Positions 48,956 through 54,487 of a stretch of DNA of 64,000 nucleotides are shown one piece after another. Within the stretch, counting starts at the first letter, position 1. Each line of letters opens with the position of its first letter. This DNA is from Pirellula sp. SH-Sr6A (lineage in GTDB: Bacteria; Planctomycetota; Planctomycetia; Pirellulales; Pirellulaceae), in the NCBI RefSeq assembly GCF_001610875.1, contig NZ_CP011272.1:2089988-2153987 (forward strand), read 5' to 3'. The translations under genes and the position numbers were made by a program. Under the pieces are notes generated by a model that was given only the letters and a program-made list of their open reading frames with translations, had not been told where the DNA came from and did no database searches.

Positions 48956-50671
48956 TTATAGGATCTCCCGTTTTCGGTCTACGTAATCCCACAGAACAAA
49001 ACGATCCAAATCGTTACCGGCCGTGAAGAAGACGCGTCCTTTGGTTTGTTCGGCAAGGCGGTGCGCAAAACGAATATCTTCCTCCGATTGCGACCAACTC
49101 GGCACGAGAAAGATGTTGATGGTTATACCATCTTTCTGACAAAGCATCGCTTCTCGCATGGTTTCCTGCTCGGTTCGCGGGTCGGGCGGATAGAGGAGAT
49201 AGAGCATTTCTCCTTCAAAGTGGGCAGTCGGCAATCCATCGGTGATGAGAATGATCTGTTTATTGGGTGTATCCGTATTGATCAAGTTCTGTCTGGCGAG
49301 CCGAATCGCATGTTGGATGTTTGTGAAGTGAGGCGGGATGTCCATCTCGCTCACCTTCGGATCGCTCATATCCGCTTTGAGCCGAACGACTGGGTGATGG
49401 ATCGTGACAGGCTTTGGTAGCAGATCGATGACTTCACCGGGGCGAGTCAGTTTGGCAAACGAGTACATTTCTACAAATCGCAAAAAGTCACCGGGGTATT
49501 CACGCGTGATCAACCCCTGGAGAGCGAGCGCCATCCGCTTGACGTTCATATATTGGCCGTCGTATCGCATCGAGCCACTCATGTCCATGACTACCACGGT
49601 AGCGCAGCGCGGAGTGTTCTTGGTACGATAGACCTCTAAATCTTCGGAACGCAATCGAAGCGGCTTTTCATTCGGACGTTTTAAGAGAGCATTGACGATG
49701 GATTGCGTCGCGTCCAAGTTACTGACCGAGTCACCAAACTCATACGTTTTCGTGGAAGGCAATTCGACGCTTCCATCCCCGACGATGCGGCCGTCGTGAC
49801 GCCCCGATCTACCAGCCTCCATGTGCGAAAAAATCCGCTGCAGGAGTCGGGACTGAAAGGCTTTGTATGCCTTAGGGGTCAATTGGTAGTAGCCCTGCTC
49901 ATCCCGTTCGAGCCCTTGGCGTTCGGCAGCTTCCTTAACCAGATTGCTGATTTGTTCTCGCAGTTCTTGAAGGTCATTCAAGTTTCCTTCGGGGATGAAC
50001 TCGGAAAGTGCCTCCATGTCGATGAGACCGATTTGCGCCGTCTTCGCGGCCTCCTCTAACTGTCTCAGCAATTCGTCGATCTGCTCCAATATCTTTTTCA
50101 GCTCGAGCGCTTCAGGGACATCGACCCGCTCTCGTCCGGTGAACTCGTATTTGTCCAACAGTTCCTCGATGCCACCCAAATCCACGAGCGATTCCATCGT
50201 GTGCAGGACAGCGGTCGCGAAATCCGGAGAATCGCGATCTGTTCGGTACCACAACTGCTCGAGCAAGTAAATCTGCTTGGACTGGACCGCTTTGTGGAAT
50301 TCATTCTTCCATTTCCCCGGTGGGTTCGCTCGCTTCGATGCTTTTTCGAAACGCTGCAATGCTTTCTTGTCCAATCCTTCGGTGGAGTAGGTCTCGAGGA
50401 TTTTTCGTTTCCGCTCTTCGAGCATTTGTCGGAGCATGTCGATACTCGGTCCCAGCCCCGCAATCTGGCTTGGATCGATCCGCACTGCTCGGGCCAACTC
50501 TTCCTCGGTGAGCTCGCGAAACCGACCGTAGGCCATGGCGTGCTCGAACGCCCCGCTCACAAGATCGGGAGGCTCCTGAGTCGGGCTTGGAAACTCGGTC
50601 GGATTGAATTTTTGGTAAACATGGACAATTCCGCCGATGGCTTCCGGTTTCTTAGGTTGCATCGATTTCAA
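48956..50671 (-). CDS. vWA domain protein (COG4867 type)
   Basis: A 571-aa soluble protein. A helical, charged N-terminal two-thirds contains a coiled-coil-like stretch around 195-260. A C-terminal von Willebrand factor A domain begins VVVMDMSGSMRYDGQYM (MIDAS D-M-S-G-S) and includes ITDGLPTAHF and GITINIFLVPSW. Relatives are usually encoded beside a MoxR/Mg-chelatase-like AAA+ ATPase, with which they form a chelatase or chaperone complex; none is seen here. Start at 50671 or the Met at 50662. First of a run of minus-strand genes with dciA and mobA. Confidence 0.82.
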   Translation of the reverse strand: MKSMQPKKPEAIGGIVHVYQKFNPTEFPSPTQEPPDLVSGAFEHAMAYGRFRELTEEELARAVRIDPSQIAGLGPSIDMLRQMLEERKRKILETYSTEGLDKKALQRFEKASKRANPPGKWKNEFHKAVQSKQIYLLEQLWYRTDRDSPDFATAVLHTMESLVDLGGIEELLDKYEFTGRERVDVPEALELKKILEQIDELLRQLEEAAKTAQIGLIDMEALSEFIPEGNLNDLQELREQISNLVKEAAERQGLERDEQGYYQLTPKAYKAFQSRLLQRIFSHMEAGRSGRHDGRIVGDGSVELPSTKTYEFGDSVSNLDATQSIVNALLKRPNEKPLRLRSEDLEVYRTKNTPRCATVVVMDMSGSMRYDGQYMNVKRMALALQGLITREYPGDFLRFVEMYSFAKLTRPGEVIDLLPKPVTIHHPVVRLKADMSDPKVSEMDIPPHFTNIQHAIRLARQNLINTDTPNKQIILITDGLPTAHFEGEMLYLLYPPDPRTEQETMREAMLCQKDGITINIFLVPSWSQSEEDIRFAHRLAEQTKGRVFFTAGNDLDRFVLWDYVDRKREIL

Positions 50672-50717: not shown

Positions 50718-51623
50718 TTATAGGAGCGAGGGTAGGTCGAAACAGTCTTGGAATACTGCACGGAGGCTGGGAACGCTGATGGAATTGCCAAGCAAGTGCC
50801 AGAGTTTCCGGGGTCTCAATTCCGGGGGAAGCCGAAAAGAGTCTTCGAATCCCAAGAGACGAGCCACCTCACGCGGGGTGAATCGTCGCAATCCATGCTC
50901 GGTTCGAATATACGATCCCGACTTGATGATCGAACGACCGTACGCCGCCGTGAAACAAGCTGCGACAGCATCGATGTCCGCAGGATCCACTTTGTCGATA
51001 GCCCTCTCGTACTGCCGGGCCATCTGATTGGCGATCCAAAGACCGGGCTCGCTCAGCGCGGTGGGACCGACGGGCTCTTCCAAATAGTCCGACAGCTTGC
51101 GTTTGACCACATCGCGGGAACGCCGACAAATACGTTCTCGATGCGACAAGCTGGCAATCGCATAGAAACGTGGACGAAGATTGGGCCACCCCAGCTCCGA
51201 CGGACAGAAATGAGTCCAATCGATGAGGTAACCGGCTTTGGTCCATCTGCGACGCAACAAATCAAATGCGTCGGAAGACTCGAACCCAACCACATTTTCA
51301 ATGCACACCAGCGGTGGTGTCAATTCGCATACAACGTCGATCAATCGTTTCAATGCGGCGCACCGAGGGTCCGACAAACCGCCAAGGTTCCCTCGTCGCG
51401 TAAAGGGTGTGCAGGGGGGGCTCATCCACCAGCAATCAGCTCCCTGTGCAGCAAACCAATCGGTCTCGAGGGATGCAATCTCCGCAATGCAGTAGGGATG
51501 TGCATAGTTGGATCGATACACGCAAGCGGCATGAACGTCGATATCGACGGCGTTCACGATTTGTAGGTGGGGAAACGAAGCAGCAAAACCGCCGATTCCC
51601 GCGAACAACTCCAAACACTTCAT
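50718..51623 (-). CDS. Dnmt2-type cytosine-C5 methyltransferase (probable tRNA C38 enzyme)
   Basis: A 301-aa protein with all key C5-methyltransferase motifs: SAM-binding LELFAGIGG (5-12), catalytic MSPPCTPFTRRGN (Cys 71), IENVVGFE (motif VI, ENV 109-111), NLRPRFY (motif VIII) and LLGNSISVP (motif X). The motif IV neighbourhood and the block ACFTAAYGRSIIKSGSYI (CFT 223-225) match the Dnmt2/TRDMT1 signature rather than restriction-type methylases, and RFTPREVARLLGF follows as in Dnmt2. Family members methylate C38 of tRNA-Asp or, in Geobacter, tRNA-Glu. There is no restriction endonuclease nearby. It stands alone between a vWA and a PilZ-like gene. Confidence 0.88.
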   Translation of the reverse strand: MKCLELFAGIGGFAASFPHLQIVNAVDIDVHAACVYRSNYAHPYCIAEIASLETDWFAAQGADCWWMSPPCTPFTRRGNLGGLSDPRCAALKRLIDVVCELTPPLVCIENVVGFESSDAFDLLRRRWTKAGYLIDWTHFCPSELGWPNLRPRFYAIASLSHRERICRRSRDVVKRKLSDYLEEPVGPTALSEPGLWIANQMARQYERAIDKVDPADIDAVAACFTAAYGRSIIKSGSYIRTEHGLRRFTPREVARLLGFEDSFRLPPELRPRKLWHLLGNSISVPSLRAVFQDCFDLPSLL

Positions 51624-53134: not shown

Positions 53135-54487
53135 TTACGATCGGAGAGCGATTAGGTATCCCAGAATCGCACCTACGACCAAAGTCGGAGGAATGATGAC
53201 CGCCGCGGTCAATGCGATGGCGATCCCCGGACTGCTGACGAACCGATTTGTTGCTCTCGATTCCTCCACTCCTTGATCCAATCCAGGAGGGGATCCGGTC
53301 ACGCGACGCGATCCCGATTGCGACAACCCCGAATCTTGGGACGGAAGTGAATGGTCTTTGGAGGCCTCTTTCTCTTCGGCTCCCATCGAAGGCAAATCGT
53401 CAGCAGGGGGTGGAGGTGCAGCCCAAGGACTTCGCACGAGGGCAGGATAGGAAACAAATCCGGACTCTTGATTGGCCCAAGGTTCCAAACGTGTCGCAAC
53501 TTCGGCGCACGTTTGTGTTCGCTTCGATACGTCCTTCTCCATCATCTCCGCGATGATGTCGACGAACTCGTCCTGGAGCCAAGCCGAGAAACGACGGGGA
53601 TGCATGGGTGTTTCCTCCAAGTGCCGTCGCATCTTGGTCGCCGTGTCACCTCCGGGGAACGGAACCTTCCCGCAAACGGCATAGTAGAGCGTACACCCCA
53701 GTGAATAGACGTCGCTCGCAGGCCCGACATCCAACGGAGTACGGATTTGCTCAGGGGACAAGTAGTCGGCGGTTCCGACGATCTTTCCGGCACGGGGATC
53801 ATCGACAAGATTTGCAGTAAAACTCGCCAGCCCCACATCGGACACCTTAGCAGCCCCCTCCGGAGTCACCAGGATATTGCCGGGTTTCACATCCCGATGC
53901 ACCATCCCTTTTTGGTGGGCATAGTCCAACCCGAGCGCAGCCTGCATGATTATCTTCGCCGCGCGCGCTTGACTCAATGGTCCCTGCGTCTTTACCAAAC
54001 GTCTTAAATCCATCCCTGGAACATATTCGGTCACCAGGTAATGAATGCGCCCATCCTGACCTGCATCATACGCTCGGACGAGATACTCGCAGTCGAGTTT
54101 GGCCTGGAGTCGAATCTCGCGAATGAATCCTTCCCGGGCCTCTTCGGTCGCCTTCTGCAGCGGCAGGACTTTGACGGCACACACTCGTCCCATGACCTGA
54201 TGCACGCCTTTGAACACGTGCCCCATGCCGCCTTGTCCGATCGAGTCGGTGATGATGTAGGGGCCAAGATTCAGTTTGTGACGCCCCTCGAGCAACTGCG
54301 CCGCTTGATATTCCGTAATGGCGCCTTGTTCGACCAATATCTCTTTAAGGAGAAGATCCTCTTGGTCCTGGGAGCAAGCCATCCCGCCGGTAACGATGCG
54401 ATGACGGAGCAATCGAAGGCAGTAATCCCATTGGGACGGAGAAACGACTCCGCTCGCTATCACCGCTTGCCGAAACCGACTCTCCAT
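53135..54487 (-). CDS. Membrane-anchored Ser/Thr protein kinase
   Basis: A 450-aa Hanks-type kinase. An N-terminal segment of about 70 residues (IASGVVSPSQWDYCLRLLRH, YQAAQLLEG) precedes the kinase domain: GQGGMGHVFKG (P loop), VCAVKVLP (Lys), HRDVKPGNI (catalytic loop), GTADYLSPEQI (activation segment). The metal-binding DFG is DVG here (KVSDVGLASF), a change that still keeps the Asp. A Pro/Ser-rich linker leads to one C-terminal transmembrane helix (GIAIALTAAVIIPPTLVVGAI), which anchors the enzyme. This N-terminal extension is common in planctomycete kinases. Confidence 0.92.
   Translation of the reverse strand: MESRFRQAVIASGVVSPSQWDYCLRLLRHRIVTGGMACSQDQEDLLLKEILVEQGAITEYQAAQLLEGRHKLNLGPYIITDSIGQGGMGHVFKGVHQVMGRVCAVKVLPLQKATEEAREGFIREIRLQAKLDCEYLVRAYDAGQDGRIHYLVTEYVPGMDLRRLVKTQGPLSQARAAKIIMQAALGLDYAHQKGMVHRDVKPGNILVTPEGAAKVSDVGLASFTANLVDDPRAGKIVGTADYLSPEQIRTPLDVGPASDVYSLGCTLYYAVCGKVPFPGGDTATKMRRHLEETPMHPRRFSAWLQDEFVDIIAEMMEKDVSKRTQTCAEVATRLEPWANQESGFVSYPALVRSPWAAPPPPADDLPSMGAEEKEASKDHSLPSQDSGLSQSGSRRVTGSPPGLDQGVEESRATNRFVSSPGIAIALTAAVIIPPTLVVGAILGYLIALRS

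What the first reader, a model, noticed from the sequence alone, without database searches (positions are those of the whole stretch)
50718..51623. Bacterial Dnmt2 homologue
The CFT motif and the motif IV and VIII neighbourhoods place this protein with Dnmt2/TRDMT1, a mostly eukaryotic tRNA methyltransferase with few bacterial members. There is no restriction gene nearby. It could methylate C38 in tRNA-Asp or tRNA-Glu and may relate to queuosine or translation fidelity.
Basis: partly seen in the sequence, partly recalled or inferred. Interest (0 to 1): 0.65.

Follow-up and report, generated by a model that had tools for sequence, protein, structure and literature searches.

The report
Bacterial Dnmt2-type tRNA cytosine methylase
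This bacterium of the Pirellula group carries a genuine relative of Dnmt2, the enzyme that puts a methyl mark on a transfer RNA in animals and fungi, but its usual target (the aspartate tRNA) has lost the base to be marked here, so the glutamate tRNA is the likely target.

Summary
The ORF at 50718-51623 (- strand, 301 aa) is real and is a Dnmt2-family C5-cytosine methyltransferase. Human DNMT2 is its best solved relative (E 6e-32; HhaI 3e-11). It has the CFT motif, found in 0 of 22 ordinary C5 DNA methylases of related bacteria. In a tree, 46 bacterial homologues and 4 eukaryotic Dnmt2s form one clade (100/99) apart from 17 DNA methylases. Its AlphaFold model (pLDDT 94) matches Dnmt2 structures first. 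It is the only PF00145 gene in the 6.53 Mb genome, and no restriction gene is near.

The substrate guess needs correcting. tRNA-Asp(GUC) has A38, here and throughout the genus, so it cannot be the C38 target. The only chromosomal tRNA with C36-A37-C38 is tRNA-Glu(UUC). Best reading: an m5C38 methylase of tRNA-Glu, like the Geobacter enzyme. The queuosine link has no support, because Asp lacks C38 and Glu carries no Q.

The family is broader in bacteria than a 2011 survey stated (Geobacter only), spanning several phyla. It is patchy, though: about half of Pirellula-genus genomes but 4 of 195 Planctomycetota. New member of a known kind; activity untested.

The parts
50718..51623 (-). Dnmt2-family C5-cytosine methyltransferase gene, 301 aa
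51411..51422 (-). motif IV SPPC (residues 68-71), catalytic cysteine C71
   Evidence: invariant in 40 bacterial homologues; aligned with human DNMT2 SPPC
51291..51299 (-). motif VI ENV (residues 109-111)
   Evidence: invariant in 40 homologues
51168..51176 (-). motif VIII RxR (residues 150-152, R-P-R)
   Evidence: R150 and R152 invariant
50949..50957 (-). Dnmt2-type CFT motif (residues 223-225)
   Evidence: present here; CF[TAG] in 75 of 80 homologues and in 0 of 22 Pirellulales C5 DNA methylases
48956..50671 (-). VWA-domain gene 46 bp downstream on the same strand; probably an incidental neighbour
   Evidence: PF13519; present in 25 of 27 genus genomes, adjoins dnmt2 in three

Best explanation
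[quoted passage not shown] Shown: family membership, intact catalytic motifs, no restriction partner, and C38 present in tRNA-Glu but absent in tRNA-Asp. Inferred: catalytic activity, tRNA rather than DNA as substrate, and tRNA-Glu as the actual target. The physiological effect (stability, charging or decoding of Glu codons) is not known.
For: Best PDB relatives are Dnmt2s. Clade with eukaryotic Dnmt2 at 100/99, DNA methylases outside. CF motif specific to the clade. Model matches Dnmt2 structures in its first nine PDB hits. Only PF00145 gene of the genome. The only chromosomal tRNA with C36-A37-C38 is tRNA-Glu(UUC), and tRNA-Asp is A38. The Geobacter homologue is listed in a review as the exception to tRNA-Asp methylation, with reference to its tRNA-Glu specificity (PMC5372726).
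Against: No activity data. tRNA-Glu has the same C38 in genus members that lack the gene, so there is no covariation. The gene is patchy and evolves fast, so it is dispensable.
Confidence: 0.68

Rival explanations
1. A Dnmt2 with another tRNA target: C38 of tRNA-His (loop TTGTGGC), or the C38-bearing tRNA-Val and tRNA-Leu of the genome's tRNA array.
For: These tRNAs have C38. tRNA-His also has G34, a queuosine site, and tgt is present. From general knowledge, some eukaryotic Dnmt2s also act on tRNA-Val.
Against: tRNA-His has G36-G37 before C38, unlike the C-A-C context of the known targets. The array tRNAs score low and may be poorly expressed; array conservation in other Dnmt2 genomes was not tested.
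Confidence: 0.13
2. An orphan DNA cytosine methylase (or remnant of a restriction-modification system) that merely resembles Dnmt2.
For: Pfam, PADLOC and PHROG profiles are DNA methylase profiles. The gene changes place within the genus, as mobile methylases do.
Against: Falls outside DNA methylases in the tree, has the CF motif that they lack, matches Dnmt2 structures better than HhaI, and no nuclease was found nearby in the window.
Confidence: 0.12
3. A decaying gene without activity.
For: Present in about half of the genus and in 4 of 195 Planctomycetota; less conserved than its neighbour (60% against 80% identity to G022).
Against: All catalytic motifs intact; full-length model of high confidence; dN/dS about 0.11 between two close relatives.
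Confidence: 0.06

Closest known systems
GsDnmt2 of Geobacter sulfurreducens (tRNA-Glu m5C38 methyltransferase; Shanmugam 2014, known here only through the review PMC5372726)
   Same: Same bacterial Dnmt2 clade: Geobacteraceae loci L135 and L168 are in the tree. tRNA-Glu with C38 is a candidate target in both.
   Different: In the two Geobacteraceae genomes read, tRNA-Asp has C38 too; here it is A38. The window protein is closer to other Pirellula rows. The G. sulfurreducens protein itself was not in the tree.
Human DNMT2/TRDMT1 (PDB 1g55, 9hgm)
   Same: Motifs I, IV, VI, VIII and CFT, fold, no N-terminal domain
   Different: 32% identity in the alignment; bacterial host; its classic target tRNA-Asp C38 is absent here
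M.HhaI-type and other C5 DNA methylases
   Same: PF00145 fold and chemistry
   Different: Separate clade; no CF motif; no nuclease partner here

Membership tests
Dnmt2/TRDMT1 family | C5-methylase fold with motifs I, IV (PPC), VI (ENV), VIII (RxR) | tested here: met
Dnmt2/TRDMT1 family | CFT motif in the target-recognition region | tested here: met
   CFT at residues 223-225; 0 of 22 DNA methylases have CF[TAG]xxY
Dnmt2/TRDMT1 family | Groups with eukaryotic Dnmt2 to the exclusion of DNA methylases | tested here: met
   clade support 100/99
Dnmt2/TRDMT1 family | Single catalytic domain without added regulatory domain | tested here: met
   301 aa, PF00145 over residues 1-294
Dnmt2/TRDMT1 family | Classic substrate tRNA-Asp with C38 | tested here: not met
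   tRNA-Asp loop CTGTCGA, A38, here and in all 28 genus tRNA-Asp genes read. This is a property of the host tRNA, not of the protein; it excludes that substrate, not membership
Dnmt2/TRDMT1 family | Alternative known substrate tRNA-Glu with C38 | tested here: met
   tRNA-Glu(UUC) loop CTTTCAC
Dnmt2/TRDMT1 family | m5C38 methylation activity on tRNA | not testable with these tools
   needs tRNA bisulfite sequencing or an enzyme assay
Type II restriction-modification C5 methylase | Cognate restriction endonuclease nearby | tested here: not met
   no nuclease among ten proteins of the region; neighbours in relatives inspected by ORF only
Type II restriction-modification C5 methylase | Nests among DNA methylases in phylogeny | tested here: not met
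Queuosine-coupled Dnmt2 (S. pombe type) | Target tRNA-Asp carries both a Q34 site and C38 | tested here: not met
   tgt present, but tRNA-Asp is A38; only tRNA-His combines G34 and C38 on the chromosome

The most novel reading that the evidence does not exclude
Bacterial Dnmt2 is a broad, old family whose substrate follows whichever of tRNA-Asp or tRNA-Glu has kept C38. In Pirellula and its relatives Asp is A38, so Glu(UUC) must serve. In Acidobacteriota, many Myxococcota bins and Phycisphaera Glu(UUC) is A38 or U38, so Asp or Glu(CUC) must serve. The enzyme would thus swap targets by lineage.
Probability: 0.35. Interest if true: 0.6.

Novelty: new member of a known kind. Interest (0 to 1): 0.42.

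Why it matters
A 2011 survey knew bacterial Dnmt2 only from Geobacter and suggested transfer from eukaryotes (PMC3227630). A bacterial family in several phyla, placed as sister to the four eukaryotic Dnmt2s (94/66, not firm), makes a bacterial origin of Dnmt2 worth testing. An organism in which the classic target has lost C38 is a natural test of Dnmt2 specificity, and offers possible tRNA-Glu methylation uncoupled from queuosine.

Tried and rejected
The single-sequence scan of genome contigs found nothing; the alignment scan did. Viral contigs gave only three distant hits, two of which fall outside the Dnmt2 clade in the tree (the third has the same coordinates and identity as the second). 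A functional link to the VWA neighbour was rejected: that gene is in 25 of 27 genus genomes and dnmt2 adjoins it in three. Coevolution of C38 with gene presence in the genus showed no signal, since the tRNAs are the same with and without the gene. Literature: the only held paper with both Dnmt2 and Planctomycetes is an incidental hit on RNase P. The Geobacter original paper is not held, so its tRNA-Glu result is taken from a review's citation.

Full report
Observation. The ORF 50718-51623 on the minus strand (301 aa, ATG) is present as described. Pfam gives PF00145 over residues 1-294 at 3e-31. NCBI's dcm model stays below its cut-off (97.4 against 100.65 bits). In the PDB the best sequence relatives are human DNMT2 (6e-32), then insect, S. 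pombe and Entamoeba Dnmt2; HhaI follows at 3e-11 in its commonest sequence.

Family. An alignment with human DNMT2 shows SPPCTPFTRRG for SPPCQPFTRIG, ENVVGFE for ENVKGFE, PNLRPRFYAIA for PNSRLRYFLIA and CFTAAYG for CFTKGYG. In 40 bacterial homologues C71, E109-N110-V111, R150 and R152 are invariant; C223 and F224 are nearly so, while the third position of CFT varies (CFT 58, CFA 11, CFG 6 and none 5 of 80). None of 22 C5 DNA methylases from the same order has the motif. The motif was not used in the pattern that fetched the homologues, so this is an independent check.

Tree. With IQ-TREE (69 rows, 304 columns), 46 bacterial homologues including the window protein and 4 eukaryotic Dnmt2s form one clade at 100/99 with a stem of 1.68 changes per column. 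17 DNA methylases (16 from Pirellulales plus HhaI) and two viral methylases lie outside. The bacterial rows are sister to the eukaryotic ones at 94/66, which is not firm. The window protein pairs with another Pirellula row (100/96). The AlphaFold model (pLDDT 94.3) matches Dnmt2 structures in its first nine PDB hits (best 1.6e-26), with HhaI next at 1.7e-20.

Distribution. A scan of 84,980 species genomes returned 157 related loci. The best 80 carry titles from Planctomycetota, Acidobacteriota, Desulfuromonadales and Syntrophales (Thermodesulfobacteriota), Myxococcota, Campylobacterota (including the isolate Sulfurospirillum arcachonense DSM 9755), Riflebacteria, Melainabacteria and Actinomycetota. 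Most are metagenome bins, so single taxon names can be wrong (two titled Klebsiella pneumoniae very probably are). A 2011 study found bacterial Dnmt2 only in Geobacter and suggested transfer from eukaryotes (PMC3227630). Yet the gene is patchy: a clear homologue is present in 13 of 26 other genomes of the genus and in 4 of 195 Planctomycetota at E 1e-45.

Surroundings. Neighbours are VWA, DciA and MobA-like proteins downstream, and a protein without Pfam match, an HD-domain protein, a kinase and a class II aldolase-like protein upstream. None is a nuclease. The gene is the only PF00145 gene in the 6.53 Mb genome. In G022 and G024 it also adjoins the VWA gene. In another group of the genus it lies between genes that by their ORF starts look like a glucosidase and a sulfatase (named by eye, not tested), and it lies elsewhere in G021 and G011. 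The VWA gene occurs in 25 of 27 genus genomes regardless, so the pairing is probably incidental. dN/dS between G022 and G024 is about 0.11; dS to the window gene is saturated.

Substrate. ARAGORN on the genome's Rfam tRNA hits gives tRNA-Asp(GUC) with loop CTGTCGA, that is A38, and the single chromosomal tRNA-Glu(UUC) with CTTTCAC, that is C38. No other tRNA outside the array has C36-A37-C38; tRNA-His (TTGTGGC) has C38 in another context, and one tRNA-Thr-like gene (GTTGTAC) has C38 on a poor stem. In the genus all 28 tRNA-Asp genes read were A38 and all 24 tRNA-Glu genes read were C38, with or without dnmt2. This excludes tRNA-Asp C38 and leaves tRNA-Glu as the best target.

Other lineages. 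In Dnmt2-bearing genomes outside the genus, Pirellulaceae and related Planctomycetota repeat the pattern Asp A38 and Glu C38. Acidobacteriota and a Phycisphaera bin have Asp C38 with Glu(UUC) A38 where read. Myxococcota bins have Asp C38 with Glu(UUC) U38 or C38. Thermodesulfobacteriota have C38 in both. No genome in which both tRNAs were read lacked C38 in both. This fits a target that follows C38, but there was no matched set without the gene outside the genus, and C38 may be common in bacteria anyway. It is a lead, not a proof.

Verdict. A genuine Dnmt2, and a new member of a known kind.

Noticed in passing
outside the window: genome G000 contig 1, 6053989-6058767 (locus L058): An array of about 37 tRNA genes in about 5 kb, many with low Rfam scores and unlike the chromosomal copies; its tRNA-Glu copies have A38.
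   Followed up: partly
L029:2748-2826 (+) and L070:449-527 (-), outside the window: Two near-identical 79-nt tRNA-like genes with ambiguous anticodons (ARAGORN reads four-base anticodons).
   Followed up: no
window 53135-54487 (-): Serine/threonine protein kinase that matches the PADLOC PD-T4-6 models strongly (5e-73), perhaps only because those models are kinase domains; not tested as a defence gene.
   Followed up: no
genus genomes G000-G026: dnmt2 sits in at least three different chromosomal places within one genus and is absent from half of the genomes, while the VWA gene beside it here is nearly universal.
   Followed up: partly
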